Of a stretch of 49,959 nt of DNA, positions 363-15,465 are shown piece by piece. The stretch spans positions 1 to 49,959 of the forward strand of contig CAIFEG010000014.1 of the NCBI GenBank assembly GCA_903789415.1, given 5' to 3'. Origin of the DNA: an uncultured Eggerthellaceae bacterium (GTDB lineage: Bacteria > Actinomycetota > Coriobacteriia > Coriobacteriales > Eggerthellaceae). A program made the translations under genes and the position numbers. The notes below the pieces were generated by a model. It was not told where the DNA came from. It worked only from the letters and a program-made list of their open reading frames with translations, and did no database searches. How positions within the stretch are numbered: the first letter of the stretch is position 1; the number at the start of each line of letters is the position of its first letter.

Positions 363-396
363 ATGGCCCTCTTTTCACATATGAAAAGAGGGCCAT
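363..396 (-). terminator. Strong hairpin ending the pilus operon
   Basis: A perfect 15-bp inverted repeat (ATGGCCCTCTTTTCA at 363-377 and its complement at 382-396) encloses a 4-nt loop. It lies about 70 bases past the stop codon of the giant surface protein gene, which reads towards it. The U-tract is weak on both sides, so this could instead be a 3'-stabilising hairpin. The stem itself is unambiguous. Confidence 0.7.
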
Positions 397-464
397 TTCA
401 ATAAAACCTCGCTAAGCATCAACAAAATTGTTTCTTTCTACCTTACGTTATGGCTGACCTATTA

Positions 465-3400
465 TTATTTATTCCTTCCCTGAACTATTTGTGATGATTG
501 ATTTCTCATTTTCTTTATAAGAATCGCAGCCCCACCAGCTAGGCAAGCAACAAGCAAAATAAGGGGTACACGGCTATGGTCGCCATCGCTATCTGTTTCC
601 CCAATTCCAGTAGGAACTTCATCTCTACTGTTATTTGTTATGATGACTTGAGTATACTTCCCGTTTTCGTCAGTCGCACTGGATATAACACTTGCTGATT
701 TTAAGCGACCTTGATACACTCCGCTACTCAATGTAGCGGCAGTACCATCATATGTGACACTTGCTATTTCCCAATGATCACTAACATCAGAATTTTCATC
801 AGTATATTCAGGCTCGGAAACGCCAATAAGCTCGCCTGTTCCATCATCGGGACCTAGCCCATGGATAACAAAATAATGTCCGTCCCCATTAGCTTCGAGC
901 ACATATTGACCTGAGGCGCTGTAATCCCCCCAATCACTCGTTTGCACCACATTATTGTTCGCATCATAAAGAGTAATGGTGACATTATCGCTGGTGGTAT
1001 GGCGGTTAGTTAGATTCCCTAGATTCACGTTAATGGTGAAAGTTTGTGATTTGTTTCCCAGCGAACCTGTGATGTCTTTTCTGATATATAGGGGAGCATC
1101 ACCGAAATAGATTCTGTTATCCAATTCAGTTTTTTGACCACCAGTATGGTCATTTACATCCATAGGGAATGCATTTGTATCATCGCTAAATTTGTTCACA
1201 TCATTACTTAAATTAATATCGCTGCTATTAGGTCTCACCACCTGACGGTAAACCATATATTCATTGCTATTCTGAAGCAAGACGCCAATTGAGGTACTAT
1301 CATCCAGGTCGCCCTCTTTAACTATCTGTGCGCCTGAATAGGTAAGGCTCGGTAATGCTACATCTCGACCATTATTATTGTTAATTTGGACATTTCCCTG
1401 CACATAGAGAACACCTGGGCCTGCTACTTGATCAATATAGCAGACACCATCTTGGCACTCTGCTTCTTCAGTTCCGTCGTAAACCCAAACCGCTGCTGAC
1501 TGACTTGATGAGTAGTTTTGAATAGTGACATCATTCAAATGAAGTCGTGTGCCTACTGCAAATCCTGGATGTGAGGGATCACTTGTTGAACCCACATTAA
1601 AAGTAAGATTTTCAATACGAATATCGTAATCGTCAGTACTACTCAAGCTTGATCTTCCTGCAACGATCATAGGTCGCGTGGTTGTGCTATTTCGTGTTAT
1701 TGTTATCTTCTCTTCAGTTCTTGTATGCGAAGCAGCATTTGTGCCATCTGCGGGGACAGTAGGAGTATCCATTGGCGCAGGTCGTACCGTTACATTGTTC
1801 TTGTTTAGCCAAACCGTGCCATTCGTCGTGTGCGACCTATATACTTCTATTATGTCGCCGTCATGCGTCGCTTCTGCTGCCGCATAATCCAGTGAAAGAT
1901 ATGGGCCCAAAACTTTAGTTGTGCCATTTTCAGTACGAATTATCTGGCAGGTCCCTGTATCCTCACTGAGAGTTCCCCAAACAAGATTAGAGCCAGTACC
2001 TGCTGTTGCATATTGATTGGTGTTTTGTGTATTAAAAATATGAGAGAACTCATTATTTGTGTTGTTTGAAGCAGCATCTACAAGAGTGCCATTTGCATCA
2101 GAAGCCTGCGCAATAGTATCACGTGTATGAGCAACACCTAGCGCATAAAAGAACTGTTCAAATCCTACTCGTCCACCTGTAAGTTGGCCTATATGTATAA
2201 TTGATCTACTTGTGCCACTCTGAAGCGCCTGATTCGAATAGTCCATAACATCAGACTCACGGCCAGAAGTTCCGTTACCCGTTATGGTCGGAGATCCACT
2301 CAAATAGATGTATCCCCATTTGTTGTCACCAGATCCAGTGGATCCAGGGTTGCCCCATACGAGAATGCCGGTTCCATACGTCGCATTTGGCGTAGTATTG
2401 TCGCAAATGCTAACATCACCCGAAATGTTAAGACGGGTATATTTATAGAGCGCTATTGCTTGTACAACTGATTGGCCAACGTCCCCTCCGCTACTTCCAC
2501 TTCTGTTGATAGCATTATTTGTATTGTTGTTAATTTTCACAGAATCCGAAAGATTAATGGTGCATGTCGAACCACTTGTCATACGCGAGCCAATTGCAGA
2601 GCCTGCTGTCACATTAACTATCCTATTATTGCTCTCTTCAGAACCAAGGGTATTGCCACTAAGGCATGCGTTTCCGCTCATATTTAATGTATGAGTGCCG
2701 CCCCCAGCAAGCTCATGATCTGCATACAATACTGCACCACGTTGTCCGTAATTTGTATTGTGAACTAGCTGGGCATTCCCGCTAATATTAATGGTGACAT
2801 CCCCTGAATAATAAACGGTTCCACCATAATGAGCTTCGTTATAGGATATCTCCGCATTATCGGTGATGGTTATAGTCTTAGCGTCTCCATCATTGCTACT
2901 TCTACGCTCATAGATAATGGCAGATCCACAACCAGAATCAAAATTATCTGCCCCTACAACATTTACGGTACCATTTGGATTAAGCATTGCTTTGCACTGA
3001 GTAATTTTGGAACTACCCGTCATATTGAGGCTTGCATTGTAGAGAGCAACACCTCCACCACCGGTTAAGTATCCGCTTGTTGTTTTTGCAATACAATCAC
3101 TGATAGTAGCGGTACCGCTCATATTGAGCGTTCCACCCTGACCAACAAGTACACCTGCACCAGCAGAAGAATGGCTGTTTTCATTTGTACTGTGCAATAA
3201 GCTTGTTCCAACATATTTAACAAAATGCTCTACTGTTGTTGAACCCGTCAGGTTCAGAGTTCCATTCTGACGTACATCAAACGCACGTTCACCACGGTTG
3301 CTATTACTCGTAACCCAATTTAAATATTCATTTGCATCTGTCCCGGTATGTTGGCCTTCGATGTTCACATTATTCACAGTAAGCGTTGCATTTTCATTAA

Positions 3401-4085
3401 CAAGAAACGCGGAGTAATCATTATTATTATTTCGCGTATCTGCAATCGTAATGGTGGCGTTATTCTCGCCTTCAAGTGTCACGCTACCGGAAGTATTGGA
3501 AACAGTAAGCGGTCCCGTATTGGCATTGATGCTGTGTGTACCTCCGATACGAATTGTCACATCACCACTCATGGAATTCAAGGCAGTGAAGGCAGCTTCT
3601 AACGTATCGTACGAAGTATCTCCTATAGAAATCCCCGTAAATGTACTTACAGGTTGACTTGCAGATAGCTGTTCTACAGTGACCTGATCACCACTAAGAA
3701 GATTGGCGATGTTGATAACTTGGCTTGTGCTACCGTTTCCAGAAGTGTCATAGATCTGACTAGCACTTGAAGAAGATTCAGTAGAGAAAACTTGAGCGTT
3801 TCCTGTTGAAGTATCAGCTGTTGCACTACTCTGGTCAGTTTGAGAAGTAGTATCACTTACCTCAGTTTCCCCTTCTTGAGACCCTGACCCTGAAGTAGAG
3901 GTGACTGTGTTCGTTTGCGTGGAAGAAGTTGTTTCGGCGCTAGTCGTACCACTAGAGCTATTCGCACTTGTCGTAGCATTAGAGCCATCACCAAATGCAA
4001 GAGGCATGACAGGCTCGCAAATACCAAAAGACAAGACTAATGCCAGAAAAACTGTCATTATCTTATGTGCAAATGACCGCTTCAT
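465..4085 (-). CDS. Giant beta-helix surface protein with VPTGI sorting signal (pilus adhesin/ancillary pilin)
   Basis: A 1206-residue secreted, wall- or pilus-attached protein. Residues 1-31 form a signal peptide, and about 33-120 is a Ser/Thr/Gly-rich low-complexity stalk. About 170-640 consists of repeated short strands (LNMSGTATISDC, INISGNAQL and similar), typical of a right-handed parallel beta-helix adhesin, with a second, shorter strand-rich block at about 720-930. About 1015-1150 is a pilin isopeptide-type module that begins IRKDITG and ends ITNNSRDEVPTGI. It is followed by a hydrophobic segment and a basic tail, which is a sortase signal. Start: ATG with GAGGTG five bases upstream, overlapping the previous stop as ATGA, so it is translationally coupled to the FctB-like gene. 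The gene is visibly more A+T-rich than the housekeeping genes downstream, suggesting transfer. Its role as tip or ancillary adhesin is inferred from context. Confidence 0.85.
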   Translation of the reverse strand: MKRSFAHKIMTVFLALVLSFGICEPVMPLAFGDGSNATTSANSSSGTTSAETTSSTQTNTVTSTSGSGSQEGETEVSDTTSQTDQSSATADTSTGNAQVFSTESSSSASQIYDTSGNGSTSQVINIANLLSGDQVTVEQLSASQPVSTFTGISIGDTSYDTLEAAFTALNSMSGDVTIRIGGTHSINANTGPLTVSNTSGSVTLEGENNATITIADTRNNNNDYSAFLVNENATLTVNNVNIEGQHTGTDANEYLNWVTSNSNRGERAFDVRQNGTLNLTGSTTVEHFVKYVGTSLLHSTNENSHSSAGAGVLVGQGGTLNMSGTATISDCIAKTTSGYLTGGGGVALYNASLNMTGSSKITQCKAMLNPNGTVNVVGADNFDSGCGSAIIYERRSSNDGDAKTITITDNAEISYNEAHYGGTVYYSGDVTINISGNAQLVHNTNYGQRGAVLYADHELAGGGTHTLNMSGNACLSGNTLGSEESNNRIVNVTAGSAIGSRMTSGSTCTINLSDSVKINNNTNNAINRSGSSGGDVGQSVVQAIALYKYTRLNISGDVSICDNTTPNATYGTGILVWGNPGSTGSGDNKWGYIYLSGSPTITGNGTSGRESDVMDYSNQALQSGTSRSIIHIGQLTGGRVGFEQFFYALGVAHTRDTIAQASDANGTLVDAASNNTNNEFSHIFNTQNTNQYATAGTGSNLVWGTLSEDTGTCQIIRTENGTTKVLGPYLSLDYAAAEATHDGDIIEVYRSHTTNGTVWLNKNNVTVRPAPMDTPTVPADGTNAASHTRTEEKITITRNSTTTRPMIVAGRSSLSSTDDYDIRIENLTFNVGSTSDPSHPGFAVGTRLHLNDVTIQNYSSSQSAAVWVYDGTEEAECQDGVCYIDQVAGPGVLYVQGNVQINNNNGRDVALPSLTYSGAQIVKEGDLDDSTSIGVLLQNSNEYMVYRQVVRPNSSDINLSNDVNKFSDDTNAFPMDVNDHTGGQKTELDNRIYFGDAPLYIRKDITGSLGNKSQTFTINVNLGNLTNRHTTSDNVTITLYDANNNVVQTSDWGDYSASGQYVLEANGDGHYFVIHGLGPDDGTGELIGVSEPEYTDENSDVSDHWEIASVTYDGTAATLSSGVYQGRLKSASVISSATDENGKYTQVIITNNSRDEVPTGIGETDSDGDHSRVPLILLVACLAGGAAILIKKMRNQSSQIVQGRNK

Positions 4086-4834
4086 TTTTGCACCTCTTGA
4101 TTTTCTTTATTGCTCTTTCTGCGAAAGAGTGCCACAAAAATCCAGATGAGCGAAAGGATTCCTACTGCTGCAATTCCATACAGCAGATATATCGTCAGCG
4201 AATCAGATGTCTTTGTCGAAAGCGAACCCATCGATTGAATAGCACCTGCAATCATCGCCGTTGGTGTGGACTGATCTTCTTCAAGAACAGAAGGCACTTG
4301 TGCTTGTTGTAAAGACCAACCTGGGTCTCCTACTTTTGCCCCATTTCCAATAGGTGTACGCAATCTCGCAATTCCATCATGAACATCTACAGTAAGTGTA
4401 AATTCAGTGCGTTCATCCATGGTGAAACCATCAGGCTCGTTTCCTCTTGGACGCATCGTATATGTATATATTCCATCAGCTGTATCGCTATCAACTTCGA
4501 AAGTAAGAACATAATTCGTTGAACCGCGCATAGTCCAAACGAACGTATGGCCTACCGAGCCTGCGGGCATGGGCGCATCTTCCGAGGCCCCCGAAACATA
4601 CACAACCTCATAACTCATGTCATAACGCGCATCGGGTATACCATCGGGCGCCGGCTGAAAATCTTGATAGACGCGCACCTGATTCGGTTGAAGGTCTGAC
4701 TGATCAGCGCAAGCCAGTGCAGGATACGTTAGTTCCACACCTGCAGCAAATAGGACAAAGAGCACAAGCAGACCCACAGCTAAAAAACGTGTTTTAGCAC
4801 GAACTTTAGATTGTATTTCTTGCGAGCTTGCCAT
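4082..4834 (-). CDS. FctB-like minor pilin / wall-anchor subunit
   Basis: About 250 residues. It has an N-terminal hydrophobic signal segment and one extracellular beta-rich domain, with the pattern HTFVWTM...TYTMRPRG...FTLTVDVHDG resembling the Spy0128/FctA-type pilin fold. A C-terminal KTSDSL motif, a transmembrane helix and an RRK tail make up a sorting signal that differs from the VPTGI of its neighbours. In streptococcal FCT loci the small FctB subunit anchors the pilus base to the wall, and the distinct signal fits that role; this is inference. I chose the ATG at 4834 (AGGAGAAAAG upstream, four bases after the sortase stop) over a GTG at 4876 that would overlap the sortase gene. The stop overlaps the next start as ATGA. 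Confidence 0.75.
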   Translation of the reverse strand: MASSQEIQSKVRAKTRFLAVGLLVLFVLFAAGVELTYPALACADQSDLQPNQVRVYQDFQPAPDGIPDARYDMSYEVVYVSGASEDAPMPAGSVGHTFVWTMRGSTNYVLTFEVDSDTADGIYTYTMRPRGNEPDGFTMDERTEFTLTVDVHDGIARLRTPIGNGAKVGDPGWSLQQAQVPSVLEEDQSTPTAMIAGAIQSMGSLSTKTSDSLTIYLLYGIAAVGILSLIWIFVALFRRKSNKENQEVQK

Positions 4835-4838
4835 CCGG

Positions 4839-5801
4839 CTATACTTTTCTCCTGTTCTGTTGCGTTGTTGCAGCACTTCTTTCCGCTTTGATACCCTTCT
4901 TACTTCTGGTCATAAGTATGTACAGAAGTATTAAGGCTATCAGGACAGCAAGCGGAATAAAGCGATGCTGCTGTAGAAATCCTGCAATTCCATTGAAGAC
5001 ATTTTGCAATCCCGACCCGCTATTCACCTCGTCGCCAAAGGTATTGGGATAAGTTTGGTCGGTAATTTTCGTTACAAGCACTAAACGCCGATTATCATCT
5101 GAAGCGCACGTGCTTAGTAACGCAAGATGATCGTTCGGACCAACATCTACCTCTTCACGCATATACAAGGCTTCTTGCGTAATGGCGCTGTAGTAGCCCA
5201 TTGCTCCATCAGAATACACGGGTACCTGATAAACAAAAGATTTGTACACATCCGGAACCTGGATATATCCCAAAATCACTAATCCGTGGTGCTGATTTCC
5301 GTAGTAAATATCTCCGTATTGGTGCTGATCGAAAAACTCGCGATCGGCAAATTTGTCCAAGCTTCCAAACATTTCATCATGGGCCATATGATGTCCATAA
5401 ATAATCGATGCGAAATCAGAGAAGTCACGCGACGCTTTGCTGTCTAGAAACAAACTTCCGCTGTATGAATACTTTCCCGTTGGATCCGTGTTCAGGTATT
5501 TTTCGTTATCCTGACCTTGGACCAGTGGATAGTCAATCTTTGTGCCATAAATCTGCAGCCATCCAAATACATCAGGATTCATAGCAACAAGATCGTTATA
5601 CGACGGAAGATGCTCCGTACGATCGGGCTTGTAGGCCTGATAATTACTTGCATCTGCCTGGGAATAAACCTGGCGAGCATCCCATAATGCGTATGCACTT
5701 AAAACAAGAATCGCCAGAAAGATGATAAGAACTATGGTATCTACCGCAGAGCTAAAAAACGAGACGACCCTCTTGCCAAGAATCTCATGCTCTTTTGACA
5801 A
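4839..5801 (-). CDS. Class B sortase (pilus-assembly type)
   Basis: A 320-residue membrane transpeptidase predicted to cleave sorting signals and link pilin subunits. There is a transmembrane segment at about 20-40. The catalytic domain covers about 75-260, with the His motif IIYGHHM, the active-site Cys in LLSTCASD and the Arg in NRRLVL. A second C-terminal transmembrane helix ends in a basic tail. The layout matches the class B enzymes (Spy0129/SrtC1 type) that polymerise FctA pilins rather than housekeeping SrtA. The start is a TTG with GAGG nine bases upstream; no ATG fits better. It sits 87 bases after the major pilin and just before the FctB-like gene, so it belongs to the same operon. 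Confidence 0.88.
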   Translation of the reverse strand: MSKEHEILGKRVVSFFSSAVDTIVLIIFLAILVLSAYALWDARQVYSQADASNYQAYKPDRTEHLPSYNDLVAMNPDVFGWLQIYGTKIDYPLVQGQDNEKYLNTDPTGKYSYSGSLFLDSKASRDFSDFASIIYGHHMAHDEMFGSLDKFADREFFDQHQYGDIYYGNQHHGLVILGYIQVPDVYKSFVYQVPVYSDGAMGYYSAITQEALYMREEVDVGPNDHLALLSTCASDDNRRLVLVTKITDQTYPNTFGDEVNSGSGLQNVFNGIAGFLQQHRFIPLAVLIALILLYILMTRSKKGIKAERSAATTQQNRRKV

Positions 5802-5888
5802 GTAAGATCGCCTCGCTTCTTTTACATCCTATCAGCGCAAAGCACACAGTCTTGAGCTTGACTCACCTTACGTTTGCTTTACCTATTA

Positions 5889-7196
5889 TTATTCCTGCTC
5901 GCGACGACGCTTGCGGGACACGCCGTAGGCCGCAATACCGACGATGGCGATGATGCCGAGCGCGATGAACGGCAGGTTGTTCATGACGATGCCGGTAGGA
6001 ACGTTGCCCGAACGATCATTCGTCAAAACAAACGCGTTGGTTCCCGTCGCCGCCGTCGTGCCGGTTTGATTCTCACCGTGAGTCAACGTTTGGGCAGGGA
6101 ACACACCAGCAGATGTTGCCGTAACATCGCTTGCGGTAGTGGTCTGCGCGTTATGGAAGGTAGCACTTGCCGTATGGCCGTCGAGGCTGGTCTCTGTCAC
6201 AGCGATGGTCGAGTTGTTCGGCAGCGTGTTGCTCGTGAACGTCACCGTCTCATCAGCTGCAAGGGTGATGGGATTCGTGCTCGAGCTATCAATGGTTACG
6301 GAAGTCGAACCGGCAGGGATGGTGACGCTATGCGATGTGCCGGTACCCTTTTGATAATTTATTGTGATATCAGATGTCTGTTCCGAAGGAATAGTGATCA
6401 CTGCCGTAATTGGGAACTGCTCGGTGCGGTTGCCCTGGTTGCCCGTCACAAGTTTCTGAATGGTGAAATTCGCTGAATAGGTCGTGTCGTTCACGAAACG
6501 GAACTCGCCATTGTCGCCGGGGTTGATCTTGGCATCTGTCACATCAGTGCTGGCTGGAACAGTGGTTCCCGTCGTACTCCAAACACGGATTCCTCCGTAC
6601 GTAAGACTTGTTCCAGTTGTCTCACCGGAAGGACCTGGGTCTTCAGCAGTATTTGTATGATTCGTTATGTAAACGCGCATTATATAACGTTGGGTAGAAT
6701 ATGTATAATTCCCGTTTCCAGCAACTTCTGTCACTCGATAGATAAATTCGCCTGCATGGCCGAAGTCTGCCGCGCCCGCTGCTGCTCCATTTTGAGGAAA
6801 GAATGAAGTACCAGTAATCGATCCTGTGGAAGACGAAGCGGGACTGTTCGCAGTCTCTCTGGTAATATGGACCGTTCCCGTAGTAGTTGAGCCTGTAGGC
6901 GTCGCCGTACCCAGAACAGGGGCATCGTCTGTTGCGGCTGTACCATCACTGTTGATGCGTTCAAATTGGAATGTGAAATCCTCGTTGGTCGGTGCCGTTT
7001 GGTCGCTATTTGTAACTACGTCTTTGTACAAATGCAAATTCGCAGGAGCGCTGACCCCATTAGATCCGGTCGAAGCTGCAAAAGCTGATGCAGGCGAAAA
7101 GGTTGCCATTCCATAACCTGCTAATACCAAAGCCGCCGTGGTCAGAAGTACGCCTAACTTTCTTTTAAATTTATATGCATACGTGTGACTAACCAT
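5889..7196 (-). CDS. Major pilin, FctA/Spy0128-like, VPTGI sorting signal
   Basis: A 435-residue secreted structural pilin. The signal peptide covers about 1-40. Domain 1 (about 48-235) starts ANLHLYKDV and contains a Glu motif, YRVTEVAGNGNYTYS. Domain 2 (about 240-395) starts FTIQKLVTG, contains VTETSLDGH and ends FVLTNDRSG. These Lys, Glu and Asn positions are where FctA-type pilins form internal Lys-Asn isopeptide bonds. The sorting signal is NVPTGI, then a hydrophobic helix and RKRRREQE. Streptococcal FctA also uses a VPTG-type motif. The start has an ideal AAGGAG six bases upstream. It is first in the minus-strand operon, with a TATAAT box at 7253-7258. Subunit identity is strong, but the exact isopeptide residues need a structure. 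Confidence 0.88.
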   Translation of the reverse strand: MVSHTYAYKFKRKLGVLLTTAALVLAGYGMATFSPASAFAASTGSNGVSAPANLHLYKDVVTNSDQTAPTNEDFTFQFERINSDGTAATDDAPVLGTATPTGSTTTGTVHITRETANSPASSSTGSITGTSFFPQNGAAAGAADFGHAGEFIYRVTEVAGNGNYTYSTQRYIMRVYITNHTNTAEDPGPSGETTGTSLTYGGIRVWSTTGTTVPASTDVTDAKINPGDNGEFRFVNDTTYSANFTIQKLVTGNQGNRTEQFPITAVITIPSEQTSDITINYQKGTGTSHSVTIPAGSTSVTIDSSSTNPITLAADETVTFTSNTLPNNSTIAVTETSLDGHTASATFHNAQTTTASDVTATSAGVFPAQTLTHGENQTGTTAATGTNAFVLTNDRSGNVPTGIVMNNLPFIALGIIAIVGIAAYGVSRKRRREQE

Positions 7197-7597
7197 TGAT
7201 ATCTCCTTCTCTCGGTTTGCACCTAAACATTATTGATACTTTTGAGACCGTAATTATAACATTTATGAAGCTGCACAATTGATTCAGCGAGTAAATCCTA
7301 CAACATTTACACTCAACATGAATGAAACCCGCTCCCCTTAAGCCTGGTCATATGGTCTCGATTCAGGGTCATTTTATCTTTTGTTCAAGGAAAATCAAAA
7401 GTGAACTTTGTATATAAAAACAGCTATGAACACCAGTTCATCGCGGTTTTTCTTTGGATTGCTTGACTTATTTTTTGAATTGCGTTCACAAAAATAACAA
7501 ATTGTTTGGAATACATTCAAATTAAGGTATCTATAGGCTATATATTATCTAATACCGAGAATTGAGATTCGTTCATTGTATGAGAGAGACACCATCT
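7197..7597. promoter_or_regulatory. Divergent promoter region between pilin operon and sipA-like gene
   Basis: A 400-base A+T-rich intergenic region. On the minus strand a perfect TATAAT (7258 down to 7253) lies about 55 bases before the pilin start. On the plus strand TATATTATCT, near 7540, is a plausible -10 for the SipA-like gene. No convincing -35 box is visible for either. The long, shared, A+T-rich region would suit regulated or phase-variable control of the pilus, but no operator or invertible repeat was recognised. Confidence 0.45.
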
Positions 7598-8227
7598 ATG
7601 CCGCAGCATCTTGCGCAAAACCTATCAAATACGAACCGGAATGCAGATGCATATACGAATCATTCTGTAGATAAAGTACAATCAGGCAGATCTTCGACTC
7701 ACAAGAAAACCGCACCGAAGAAGAAACGCAAGAAGACCAGTTTCGCCCATGACCTGTCTTTCCTGCTGGTAAAGATCGGTATTGTCATCTGCGTATTCAT
7801 CGTGCTGTTTACGTTTGTCTTTGGGATTTTTCGCGTGAATGATCCTTCGATGACTCCTACACTAAAGCCCGGAGATCTTGTACTTACCTATCGGCTGAAT
7901 TCCGATATTAATTTTCATGATGTGGTTGCCTATGAATACCACAATGAAACGACATTTGGCCGCGTAGTTGCACGTGCTGGCGACACAGTCGATATTACGG
8001 ACAGCGGCTTACTCGTAAATGGTACCCCACAGGAAGAAGAAGGAATCTACAGCCCAACCACCCAATTTGAAGGTGGCACCACAATGCCTTTAACAGTACC
8101 CGACGGGCAGGTGTTTGTGCTGGGCGATAACCGTGCAAATGCCACAGATAGTAGGATTATCGGGTGCATTAATACGAGTGATCTTGAAGGCGTAGTCATG
8201 AGTGAGCTACGCACACGCAGGATTTAG
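7598..8227 (+). CDS. SipA-like signal peptidase I homologue lacking the catalytic lysine
   Basis: About 209 residues, in the signal peptidase I (S26) fold. It has a basic Lys-rich cytoplasmic N-terminus, a transmembrane helix at about 60-85, then box B NDPSMTPTLKPGD, which keeps the Ser. Box D reads TFGRVVARAGD, and box E LGDNRANATDSR. Active enzymes have KR in box D; here Gly replaces the general-base Lys. In the streptococcal FCT locus SipA is likewise a non-canonical signal peptidase, needed for pilus assembly. A chaperone-like role is therefore more likely than proteolysis (inference). The ATG at 7598 is preferred, with GAGAGAGA eight bases upstream; an ATG at 7580 and a TTG at 7562 are in frame. 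It is divergent from the pilin operon. Confidence 0.82.
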   Translation: MPQHLAQNLSNTNRNADAYTNHSVDKVQSGRSSTHKKTAPKKKRKKTSFAHDLSFLLVKIGIVICVFIVLFTFVFGIFRVNDPSMTPTLKPGDLVLTYRLNSDINFHDVVAYEYHNETTFGRVVARAGDTVDITDSGLLVNGTPQEEEGIYSPTTQFEGGTTMPLTVPDGQVFVLGDNRANATDSRIIGCINTSDLEGVVMSELRTRRI

Positions 8228-8290
8228 CCCGCTGGTTTGAGACGTCGCAAAGGATTTTTCGTACGCGCTTTCCTTTTGTTTCGATATACA

Positions 8291-8353
8291 AAAGAGCCCT
8301 GAATTTGAGCTGATGGTCAGAAGCTGGCAGACAGTTCGCGTTCAGGGCTCTTT
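8291..8353. terminator. Bidirectional terminator between sipA-like gene and tyrS
   Basis: AAAGAGCCCTGAA (8291-8303) is the reverse complement of TTCAGGGCTCTTT (8341-8353), with a 37-nt loop. The stem is flanked by A on one side and T on the other, so it can end both convergent transcripts: the sipA-like gene on plus and tyrS on minus. Confidence 0.75.
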
Positions 8354-13104: not shown

Positions 13105-13169
13105 GTCACGTGGTGGCACGCTTTAAAACGTTTTGGCACGTTCAAGTCCGTGTGAATGTCACGTGGTGG
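13105..13169. repeat. Short direct repeat after the PBP stop codon
   Basis: GTCACGTGGTGG occurs at 13105-13116 and again at 13158-13169, the second copy overlapping the PBP stop codon. Between them are two GGCACG copies around a TTTAAAACGTTTT palindrome. This may be a small duplication or a structured 3' end. No function was recognised. Confidence 0.5.
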
Positions 13170-15465
13170 GCTGGGTTGTACTGCCTCCGCCACCGGAAGA
13201 GCCCCCGCCACCGGTACTCGGGGTGGTCGTGCCGCCTCCGCCAGACGATGACCCGGACGAGCTGGAACCTCCTGACGACGGTGTCGATGCGCCGCCTGAT
13301 GATGATGAGCCGCCAGAGTTGCCTGGCTGGCTACTTCCACCCGAAGACGTGTTCGACTGCGCATTCGAAGAAGAAGCATTGTTGTCGTTTGATCCCTGCG
13401 ATTGGCCAGATCTGCCTTCGGTATAGGTGGAAGAACCATTCTGCGAGCCCGACGAAGACCCGTAGCCTGAACTTCCGCTTCCACTGTTGCCATAATTGTA
13501 GGAGTAGTAGTTTGACCCGGTATTTCCTTGCGTCTGATACCCACCAAGCGTCTGAAGCTGGCTATCCGAAAGTTCGTGATAATCGGGGCTCTGCGCGTTT
13601 GCCATCGGGAATTCTTCGGGCTGCTGACCCTGCAGCGCCTGATCCAAGAACGAGGAGAACACACTTGCTGCCGTGTAGTTCGGGTTCATAGGCGACTGGT
13701 CGCGCGCGCCCATCCAAATGGCAACGGAATATTGCGGCGTAATTCCGCAGAACCAACTGTCGTGGAAGTTCTCGGATGTGCCCGTTTTACCTGCGGCAAC
13801 CTGCCCGGTGCTCAGGCGGGCGGCGCGTCCTGTACCCTCCGATGAATTGATGACGCCTTCCATAACCTGTTCGGCAGCTTTGGCCGTGCTTTGTGAAATC
13901 GCGCGTTCACCTGAGGTATCGGGATGGTAAATCGTTTTGCCATCAGCATCCACAATATTGGTTGCCACCTGCGTGTCATGGCGAATACCGCCAGATGCGA
14001 TGGTCGCGTAGCCTTCCGCCATATCGCGCACGGTTACGTCGTCGGCACCAAGGGTAATTGACGGCACCACCGAAAGCTGCGTTTGCACGCCACACTTTTC
14101 TGCCATTGCCGCGATCTTGTCGGGTCCGAGCATGGTCGCGATGCGAGCAAATCCCGTATTTGAAGACACGTCGAATGCCGAGGCAATCGTGCGGGTGCCA
14201 TATTCGGTGCCGTTGTAGTTTTCGACATTCCATGTGCCGAGCGTCGCGTGCGCCGAGCAATTGACGTACGTATTGTTTGGATCCACCCCATTTTCGATGG
14301 CGGTGAGCAACGTGTATGTCTTAAACGAAGAGCCCGGTGAACGCGTGGCTTGCGTGGCCAGGTTGTACTGGTTGTCGTAATAATCTTTGCCGCCAACCAG
14401 CGCTTTGATGTTGCCGTTTGACGGGTCAACCACCACCATGGCTACTTCGAGGTTGTTTGAAACGGTGGCTTCTTTTTCGCGTGCCGCTTCTTCGGCTTGC
14501 TCTTGCAGCTGCGGATCAAGCGTGGTCGTGACCGTCCAGCCACCCCTGAATACGTCCGATTCGCTGTAGTTAACCAGCAGCCATTGGCGAACATAGCTGG
14601 TGAAATACGGATATTGGTAAATGCCGTCCGTGCTTTCGTTTTCCGAAACGTTCAGCGTTAAGGGCTCGGCAACAGCTTCGTTGTATTGATCCTGAGTAAT
14701 ATTGCCGTTGGTAAGCATACGGTTGAGCACCAAATTGCGGCGATTGAGGCAGTTGGTTGGGTTGTCGATGGGATTGTTGTTCGTCGGCGACTGCGGAATT
14801 CCGATAAGCGTGGCCGCTTCTGCCAGCGTTAAATTGTTGCAGTCCTTGGAGAAATATTTTTGCGAGGCCGCCTGGATGCCGTATGCACCCGAACCATAGT
14901 TAATGGTGTTGAGATACATAAGCAAGATGTCATTTTTAGAGTACTTTTCCTCCAGCTTGACGGAGATGTAGGCTTCGCGAACCTTACGGCGAAGCGACTG
15001 GTCGCTGGCCTCGTCGGAAAGAATGGTATTCCTGACGAACTGCTGGGTGATAGTGGACGCGCCTTCGCGGCTGCCACCGGTAAGGTCAACAAACGCCGCA
15101 CGAACGATGCCAATAGGATCGATGCCGCCGTGATCGTAATAGCGGACATCTTCGGTGGCAACCGTGCCTTGCGTTACATAGGGGCTTATGTCATCAAGAC
15201 TTGAAACCGGATCGCGGTTTTCAAGATAGAACTCCGCTAAAAGCGTGGTGTTGTCGTCTGCATACACCCGCGTTTTTGAAGCGGTGTTGTAGGCATCCGA
15301 ATCTTCATAGTCGGGCAAGTCCTGCAGCCAAGACTCTGCCTGAGCGTATAACAAGCAGCCGCCAGCTGCCAAAAAGCAACCGATAATCGCTAGGACATAG
15401 AGCACCGGGAGATAATGACGTTTATTTCGCGTCCCTGGACGCCTTTTCATGGCACGTGAGCTCAT
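13159..15465 (-). CDS. Class A penicillin-binding protein (PBP1A type)
   Basis: A 768-residue bifunctional peptidoglycan synthase anchored by an N-terminal transmembrane helix (about 18-40). The GT51 glycosyltransferase domain (about 70-240) has EDVRYYDHGG, ASTITQQFVRN and YLNTINYGSGAYGIQAAS. The transpeptidase domain (about 330-600) has the active-site SSFK in SPGSSFKTYT, the SSNTG motif and GKTGTSENFHDSWF. The last 130 or so residues are a low-complexity Gly/Ser/Thr/Asn tail outside the membrane, common in actinobacterial PBPs. The start is an ATG with AGGAGGGG upstream. It is transcribed alone, between the arg cluster and the lipoprotein gene. Confidence 0.95.
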   Translation of the reverse strand: MSSRAMKRRPGTRNKRHYLPVLYVLAIIGCFLAAGGCLLYAQAESWLQDLPDYEDSDAYNTASKTRVYADDNTTLLAEFYLENRDPVSSLDDISPYVTQGTVATEDVRYYDHGGIDPIGIVRAAFVDLTGGSREGASTITQQFVRNTILSDEASDQSLRRKVREAYISVKLEEKYSKNDILLMYLNTINYGSGAYGIQAASQKYFSKDCNNLTLAEAATLIGIPQSPTNNNPIDNPTNCLNRRNLVLNRMLTNGNITQDQYNEAVAEPLTLNVSENESTDGIYQYPYFTSYVRQWLLVNYSESDVFRGGWTVTTTLDPQLQEQAEEAAREKEATVSNNLEVAMVVVDPSNGNIKALVGGKDYYDNQYNLATQATRSPGSSFKTYTLLTAIENGVDPNNTYVNCSAHATLGTWNVENYNGTEYGTRTIASAFDVSSNTGFARIATMLGPDKIAAMAEKCGVQTQLSVVPSITLGADDVTVRDMAEGYATIASGGIRHDTQVATNIVDADGKTIYHPDTSGERAISQSTAKAAEQVMEGVINSSEGTGRAARLSTGQVAAGKTGTSENFHDSWFCGITPQYSVAIWMGARDQSPMNPNYTAASVFSSFLDQALQGQQPEEFPMANAQSPDYHELSDSQLQTLGGYQTQGNTGSNYYSYNYGNSGSGSSGYGSSSGSQNGSSTYTEGRSGQSQGSNDNNASSSNAQSNTSSGGSSQPGNSGGSSSSGGASTPSSGGSSSSGSSSGGGGTTTPSTGGGGSSGGGGSTTQPTT

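What the first reader, a model, noticed from the sequence alone, without database searches (positions are those of the whole stretch)
465..8227. FCT-type pilus island in a non-streptococcal actinobacterium
The set is a giant beta-helix protein, an FctB-like base subunit, a class B sortase, an FctA/Spy0128-like pilin and a SipA-like protein. It is the same functional kit as the streptococcal FCT locus, but in a different order, with sipA divergent and the adhesin last. Sequence shows the domains and motifs; the assembly roles are from streptococcal FCT knowledge and are inferred here.
Basis: partly seen in the sequence, partly recalled or inferred. Interest (0 to 1): 0.7.

Follow-up and report, generated by a model that had tools for sequence, protein, structure and literature searches.

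The report
Class B sortase and SipA pilus
A gut-type actinobacterium carries a complete kit for the same kind of covalent, adhesin-tipped surface pilus known from streptococci, and comparison with many related loci suggests that an inactivated signal peptidase, SipA, is a standing partner of this pilus-building enzyme well outside streptococci.

Summary
Window 465-8227 holds a pilus island: VPTG-type tip protein, FctB-like base, class B sortase, two-domain Spy0128-type pilin, and a SipA-type pseudo-signal-peptidase on the opposite strand. The host belongs to the family of Raoultibacter timonensis and Senegalimassilia anaerobia (Eggerthellaceae).

Sortase, SipA, pilin and base are nearest to streptococcal FCT/PI-2 proteins. 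Both isopeptide triads, a Spy0128-like acceptor lysine, sorting signals and the missing SipA catalytic lysine are present.

It is not a curiosity of one genome. A sortase search gave 382 relatives; of the best 80 (Bacillota and Actinomycetota mixed), 69 have a SipA neighbour and 74 a pilin. The SipA lysine is lost in all 73 readable rows and kept in 20 of 20 ordinary signal peptidases. Two metagenome bins carry SrtB and SipA fused in one frame. So: a new variant of a known kind.

Peculiar here: sipA is inverted (0 of 69 elsewhere), the tip gene is last and has no detected homologue, the sortase has a C-terminal membrane anchor, and the base ends in STKTSD, like this genome's other wall proteins, where only class B sortases were found. 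The beta-helix is plausible, unproven. Assembly itself is inferred.

The parts
465..4085 (-). Putative tip adhesin, 1206 aa: signal peptide, Ser/Thr-rich stretch, long beta-strand repeat region (probable right-handed beta-helix), C-terminal Ig-like domain by eye, VPTGI sorting signal
   Evidence: ORF; no significant family; single-sequence model of residues 148-720 pLDDT 49.6, pTM 0.58; Foldseek best hits nearly all beta-helix proteins but none significant, best E 0.016; no homologue in 138 family genomes apart from itself
603..617 (-). VPTGI sorting motif of the tip protein (same motif as the pilin)
   Evidence: read from translation
4082..4834 (-). FctB-like base pilin (likely start ATG 4834; the longest frame starts GTG 4876); isopeptide Lys replaced by Gln71, candidate acceptor Lys181 (numbered from GTG 4876), membrane tail
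   Evidence: profile match to FctB3 8k6t and FctB 3klq; Gln71 in 64 of 69 and Lys181 in 68 of 69 bases
4202..4219 (-). STKTSD, degenerate wall-anchor signal of the base; other wall proteins of this genome end LAKTSD, LAKTSD and TPQTAD
   Evidence: T-G-D is the majority at this place in other bases (62, 60 and 56 of 69)
4839..5801 (-). Pilus class B sortase, 320 aa, N- and C-terminal membrane helices, conserved His, Cys232, Arg239
   Evidence: TIGR03064 4.9e-49; best PDB 4y4q 5.4e-54 and 3psq 1.8e-32; invariant residues; C-terminal hydrophobic segment
5889..7196 (-). Shaft pilin, 435 aa, two Spy0128/CnaB-type domains; isopeptide triads K58/E157/N236 and K248/E335/N393; candidate acceptor K223
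   Evidence: profile hits to Spy0128, T18.1 and PitB; Foldseek best PitB 5.1e-10 and Spy0128; residue conservation in 72 pilins
5988..6002 (-). VPTGI sorting motif of the pilin
   Evidence: TIGR03065 7.9e-7; T 67 and G 71 of 72
7562..8227 (+). SipA-type pseudo-signal-peptidase, divergent; Ser96 kept (7847-7849), catalytic Lys replaced by Gly133 (7958-7960)
   Evidence: best PDB S. pyogenes SipA 5.9e-25; Lys absent in 73 of 73 readable SipA rows, present in 20 of 20 ordinary signal peptidases
370..399 (-). Strong hairpin after the tip gene, probable end of the operon
   Evidence: folding z -4.7, 1 of 200 shuffles as good
8288..8353 (.). Strong hairpin between sipA and the convergent tyrosyl-tRNA-synthetase-like gene, boundary of the island
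   Evidence: z -8.36, 0 of 200 shuffles
7407..8292 (.). Segment bracketed by a 16-nt imperfect inverted repeat (7407-7422 / 8277-8292) that contains sipA; flipping it would give the usual co-directional order
   Evidence: 6 of 500 shuffles as good, so only suggestive

Best explanation
The island encodes a sortase-assembled pilus of the class B sortase/SipA type. Pilin, base and tip are exported; the VPTGI signals of pilin and tip are cut by the SrtB encoded beside them, which joins each threonine to the omega-loop lysine (K223) of the next pilin. The tip protein, which has a sorting signal but no evident acceptor role, ends up outermost. The non-isopeptide base subunit is added last through its lysine K181 and is then fixed to the wall through its own STKTSD signal, most likely by another class B sortase of the genome, since no class A sortase was found. 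SipA, a signal peptidase that has lost its catalytic lysine, does not cut; it keeps the signal peptidase fold and works as a membrane-bound partner of SrtB that presents pilin stem or sorting peptides. Shown here: homology, motifs, triads, loss of the SipA dyad, linkage and two natural fusions. Inferred: polymerisation, order of assembly, wall anchoring and the action of SipA.
For: Families and PDB matches. Triads conserved in 72 pilins: K58 71, E157 72, N236 70, K248 68, E335 70, N393 71; acceptor candidate K223 68; in 3b2m the equivalent lysine lies seven residues before the asparagine (alignment), and PMC3019223 (passages) names Lys161 as acceptor. Linkage: of 80 related sortase loci 69 have SipA, 74 a pilin, 70 a base, 60 all four; of 48 with ample flanks 47 have SipA, 47 a pilin, 43 all four. 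Control: 0 of 20 non-pilus class B sortase loci of the family have a separate SipA or pilin gene within about 6 kb. SipA lysine absent in 73 of 73 and 17 of 17, present in 20 of 20 ordinary enzymes. Single-frame SrtB-SipA fusions in L115 and L122. Base signal matches the genome's other wall proteins; only class B sortases found. PMC4049620 (passages) reports SipA essential for polymerisation in S. pyogenes, with Asp and Gly in place of the dyad.
Against: No experiment. The pilin model is of low confidence. The 80 loci were the best by similarity to pilus-type sortases, two of them (L128, L130) are the same loci as profile members L044 and L043, and many are metagenome bins. Base anchoring is inferred from motif resemblance; the genome is 96% complete, so a class A sortase could be missing. 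STKTSD is far from LPXTG. PMC7900414 (passages) reports that no SipA-sortase or SipA-pilin binding was detected in vitro. The inverted sipA may be poorly expressed. Tip function is unknown.
Confidence: 0.88

Rival explanations
1. The proteins are wall-anchored monomers, not a polymer: SrtB only attaches pilin-like adhesins to peptidoglycan.
For: Most characterised class B sortases anchor proteins to the wall (PMC11987632, passages). No polymer was shown.
Against: SipA linkage and the conserved lysine K223 (68 of 72) have no evident use in simple anchoring; 0 of 20 non-pilus class B loci have a SipA or Spy0128-type pilin gene.
Confidence: 0.07
2. The island is a decaying or silenced copy: sipA has been inverted away from the operon and the base has lost its anchor motif.
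For: sipA reversed in 0 of 69 other loci; STKTSD instead of the usual TGD; low GC3 of 0.33 to 0.52 against 0.50 to 0.63 in 13 other genes of the window.
Against: All frames are intact, the functional residues are kept, and the genome's other wall proteins carry the same KTSD or QTAD type of signal.
Confidence: 0.06
3. SipA is an active, specialised signal peptidase for the pilins, using Ser96 with another base.
For: The window SipA keeps the serine; 26 of 74 readable rows keep it. PMC4049620 (passages) mentions S. suis and S. agalactiae homologues with an apparently intact dyad.
Against: The lysine is absent in all 73 readable rows and the serine in most; in S. pyogenes the residue at the serine site is dispensable (PMC4049620, passages).
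Confidence: 0.08

Closest known systems
Streptococcus pyogenes FCT-2/3/4 pilus (Cpa, SipA, FctA/Spy0128, class B SrtC1/Spy0129, FctB)
   Same: All five roles; class B sortase, SipA without the catalytic lysine, two-domain isopeptide pilin with a lysine just before the N-domain asparagine, base without isopeptide triad; core order pilin-sortase-base (FCT order recalled)
   Different: sipA inverted, tip gene last; the tip shows no match to Cpa; the sortase has a C-terminal membrane helix whereas Spy0129 has only an N-terminal one (PMC3019223, passages); base signal STKTSD rather than LPXTG; no streptococcal regulator recognised
Streptococcus pneumoniae pilus islet 2 (PitA, SipA, PitB, SrtG1)
   Same: The sortase's best PDB match is 4y4q, filed as a SrtB-family sortase; that it is SrtG1 is recalled. 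The pilin model's best fold match is PitB
   Different: Gene order, tip protein and presence of a separate base gene; details of PI-2 are recalled
Pilus loci of Raoultibacter timonensis, Senegalimassilia anaerobia, Breznakia, Enterococcus raffinosus, Lacrimispora, Bifidobacterium panos and various gut bins (loci L041-L133)
   Same: Same four-protein core; R. timonensis also has the tip gene last
   Different: sipA is co-directional in all 69 named loci where it was found; tip proteins differ
Class C sortase pili (SpaA, RrgB, Fim types)
   Same: Covalent pilin polymers with isopeptide-stabilised domains
   Different: Class C sortase with lid, YPKN pilin motif, usually no SipA (PMC3019223 and PMC4049620, passages)

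Membership tests
Class B sortase/SipA pilus (streptococcal FCT-2/3/4 and PI-2 type) | Pilus-linked class B sortase | tested here: met
   TIGR03064 above cut-off; nearest solved structures are 4y4q and 3psq
Class B sortase/SipA pilus (streptococcal FCT-2/3/4 and PI-2 type) | SipA: signal peptidase fold without the Ser-Lys dyad | tested here: met
   4n31 best PDB match; Lys to Gly. Ser is retained, unlike S. pyogenes, but this site varies across the other loci
Class B sortase/SipA pilus (streptococcal FCT-2/3/4 and PI-2 type) | Two-domain Spy0128-type pilin with Lys-Glu-Asn triads and acceptor lysine before the N-domain asparagine | tested here: met
   Profile hits, fold search on a low-confidence model, residue conservation; the bonds themselves were not observed
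Class B sortase/SipA pilus (streptococcal FCT-2/3/4 and PI-2 type) | QVPTG-type sorting signal on pilin and tip | tested here: met
   TIGR03065 above cut-off for the pilin; VPTGI read in the tip
Class B sortase/SipA pilus (streptococcal FCT-2/3/4 and PI-2 type) | FctB-like base without isopeptide triad | tested here: met
   Profile hits to FctB3 and FctB; Gln71 in place of the lysine
Class B sortase/SipA pilus (streptococcal FCT-2/3/4 and PI-2 type) | LPXTG-type signal on the base for a housekeeping sortase | tested here: inconclusive
   STKTSD, not LPXTG; matches this genome's own wall proteins; no class A sortase found
Class B sortase/SipA pilus (streptococcal FCT-2/3/4 and PI-2 type) | Covalent high-mass polymer on the cell surface | not testable with these tools
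   Needs wall extracts and microscopy
Streptococcal FCT genomic region in the strict sense | RofA/Nra-type regulator and streptococcal location | tested here: inconclusive
   The host is not a streptococcus. The neighbour is a tyrosyl-tRNA-synthetase-like frame (by reading); the contig ends 464 bases beyond the tip gene; no regulator profile was run
Right-handed beta-helix adhesins | Beta-helix fold of the tip | tested here: inconclusive
   Model of pLDDT 49.6; top fold matches nearly all beta-helix proteins, best E 0.016

The most novel reading that the evidence does not exclude
The pilus-building enzyme of this class is a two-subunit holoenzyme, SrtB plus the pseudo-peptidase SipA, spread by transfer among Bacillota and Actinomycetota, with natural single-chain versions; streptococcal FCT pili are one branch in which the sortase lacks the C-terminal membrane anchor. 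In this genome the sipA segment may in addition be an invertible switch for pilus assembly.
Probability: 0.4. Interest if true: 0.7.

Novelty: new variant of a known kind. Interest (0 to 1): 0.5.

Why it matters
Papers on S. pyogenes ask why its pilus uses a class B sortase and why it needs SipA, and report no detectable SipA-sortase or SipA-pilin binding (PMC3019223, PMC4049620 and PMC7900414, passages read). The loci gathered here show that class B pilus sortase, SipA without its lysine, and the Spy0128-type acceptor lysine travel together far outside streptococci, and that SrtB and SipA are sometimes one polypeptide. A fused protein is a ready reagent for testing whether SipA is a sortase subunit. 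The finding also points to pili on gut Eggerthellaceae, for which the listings of two text searches showed no title or abstract describing such pili.

Tried and rejected
Single-sequence search of the pilin against the PDB found nothing; the profile did. The first scan of named genomes with the window sortase alone found nothing; the alignment scan did. A search for tip relatives in 138 family genomes found only itself, and phmmer against 599 frames of the collected loci likewise. The pilin model had 5 sequences and pLDDT 53.5, with whole-chain TM-scores below 0.35; only Foldseek's ranking is used (the first 28 rows are all streptococcal pilins or Cpa). The tip model gave no significant fold match. 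A hairpin between pilin and sortase genes as an expression valve was rejected: z -0.38. Promoter and terminator consensus scans gave counts close to the shuffle means (13 against 17.2 and 8 against 6.9) and are not used. An invertible sipA segment is kept as an idea only: 6 of 500 shuffles equal the repeat, the arm length was chosen after seeing it, no recombinase was sought, and one genome of the genus is held.

Rows dropped: in the pilin count, hits outside 300-620 aa or not better than 1e-15 and the duplicates L128 and L130 (72 kept); in the tree, sequences under 230 or over 420 aa, with L043 and L044 replaced by their named copies (78 kept); in the base count, frames over 560 aa, frames that were also the sortase, and duplicates (69 kept; some of the 69 are long frames whose C-terminus lies beyond the base part); in the membrane-helix count 6 by length and 10 in which the script found no STC or STF string (68 kept). 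The 75 SipA rows include the two duplicate pairs. The 20 control sortase loci were picked by me from the weaker matches, and the 20 ordinary signal peptidases from the matches of 99 to 119 bits.
Full report
WHAT IS THERE. The window is a whole contig (C14) of a 1.88 Mb genome, 96.25% complete. Its left end carries, on the minus strand and in order of transcription, a pilin (5889-7196), a class B sortase (4839-5801), a base protein (from about 4834 to 4082) and a tip protein (465-4085), with an overlap of base and tip genes; sipA (7562-8227) lies divergently, 365 bases from the pilin start. A strong hairpin follows the tip gene and another lies between sipA and the next gene. The island has 44.8% GC against 51.2% for the rest, and GC3 of 0.33 to 0.52 against 0.50 to 0.63 in 13 other genes of the window, which fits acquired DNA.

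IDENTITY OF THE PARTS. The sortase passes TIGR03064 and is nearest in the PDB to 4y4q and 3psq, ahead of the wall-anchoring class B enzymes. SipA is nearest to S. pyogenes SipA, then to true signal peptidases. Pilin and base need profiles: with four relatives each, the pilin finds T18.1, Spy0128 and PitB and the base finds FctB3 and FctB (T18.1 pilin scores higher still, as expected of a shared domain). The pilin model is poor, but Foldseek ranks PitB and Spy0128-type pilins first. The tip has no recognised family and no homologue in the family genomes. Its repeat region gave a weak model whose best fold matches are nearly all beta-helix proteins, none significant.

RELATIVES. In the family, complete loci were found in four more genomes (L041-L044) and a fragment in a fifth (L045). 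A scan of named genomes with the sortase alignment gave 382 relatives; the best 80 were kept. Around these 80, 69 have a SipA match, 74 a pilin, 70 a base and 60 all four; 52 show the order sipA-pilin-srtB-base. Of the 48 with more than 4.5 kb upstream and 2.5 kb downstream, 47 have SipA, 47 a pilin and 43 all four. SipA was never reversed (0 of 69). As a control, 20 non-pilus class B sortases of the family, about 6 kb either side, have no separate SipA or pilin frame; two weak matches (under 20 bits) lay inside the sortase frame itself.

SIPA IS A STANDING PSEUDOENZYME. In 75 SipA rows (two duplicate pairs) the lysine site is readable in 73 and is never lysine (61 Arg, 8 Gly, 4 others); the serine is kept in 26 of 74. 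In a further 17 Coriobacteriia loci the lysine is absent in all 17, while 20 of 20 ordinary signal peptidases from the same class have Ser and Lys. In the class sample, SipA-type matches (145 bits or more; the next best match has 122) occur in 32 of 296 genomes, counted from the printed rows. The window keeps the serine and has glycine for lysine.

FUSIONS. Two of the 80 loci encode SrtB and SipA in one frame: L115 (uncultured Ruminococcus bin; SrtB residues 7-312, SipA 305-487) and L122 (Turicibacter bin; SrtB 29-287, SipA 286-464, and a second copy cut by the end of the stretch). The lysine is Gly and Arg, respectively. Both are metagenome bins, so they need confirmation. The two text searches closest to this question showed no such fusion in their listings.

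CHEMISTRY. In 72 pilins both triads are nearly invariant and a lysine just before the N-domain asparagine (K223 here) is present in 68; the alignment to Spy0128 shows a lysine in the same place. In 69 bases the isopeptide lysine position is Gln in 64, and another lysine (K181) is present in 68; PMC7900414 (passages) says FctB has no isopeptide bond. 58 of 68 sortases have a C-terminal hydrophobic segment, which Spy0129 lacks (PMC3019223, passages).

WALL ANCHORING. The genome gave three sortases, all class B by family match (one of them below the curated cut-off); the general sortase family found no class A, C, D or E enzyme. Three other wall-type proteins end in LAKTSD, LAKTSD and TPQTAD, and a fourth beside the third sortase in GKTGVN. 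The base ends in STKTSD. The simplest reading is that a class B sortase does the anchoring here; [quoted passage not shown]

HISTORY. In a tree of 78 sortases the 14 Actinomycetota rows need 8 label changes, at least 7 forced by well-supported branches; the family's own loci fall in different places. This fits repeated transfer between phyla, though paralogy and mis-binned contigs can mimic it, and the window's own placement is unresolved.

WHAT IS PECULIAR HERE. sipA is inverted and bracketed by a 16-nt imperfect inverted repeat, so that a flip would restore the usual order; the repeat is only mildly unusual (6 of 500 shuffles). The tip gene is last, as in Raoultibacter, and not first as in L041, L042 and L044 and, from recall, in FCT loci.

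VERDICT. The host is not exceptional, and the more interesting result is the general coupling of class B pilus sortase with lysine-less SipA, including fusions. Pilus formation itself remains to be shown.

Noticed in passing
L042 and L140-L147 (genome G063, same family, 1.1 Mb, 75% complete): TGA appears to be a sense codon: frames cover 0.79-0.99 of nine stretches with TGA read as Trp against 0.39-0.84 otherwise, and a TGA falls on the tryptophan that all five other sortases share. A tRNA with anticodon TCA, called selenocysteine by ARAGORN, is present. One text search found no paper holding all its terms on such recoding in Coriobacteria.
   Followed up: partly
L046:3219-4760 (genome G123): One frame joins a signal-peptidase-like part that looks active (serine kept, by reading) to a class B sortase, without a Spy0128-type pilin nearby; distinct from the SrtB-SipA fusions.
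   Followed up: no
L048:3-8485 and L049:7445-10864 (own genome, contigs C28 and C2): Three large surface proteins; C28 holds four FctA-type isopeptide domains. They end in KTSD or QTAD anchors instead of LPXTG.
   Followed up: partly
L051:5923-11230 (own genome, contig C37): A third, divergent class B sortase beside a 1453-aa surface protein ending in GKTGVN, apparently a dedicated pair.
   Followed up: no
window 13159-15465: Penicillin-binding-protein-like frame (by reading) with a long Gly/Ser-rich low-complexity tail.
   Followed up: no
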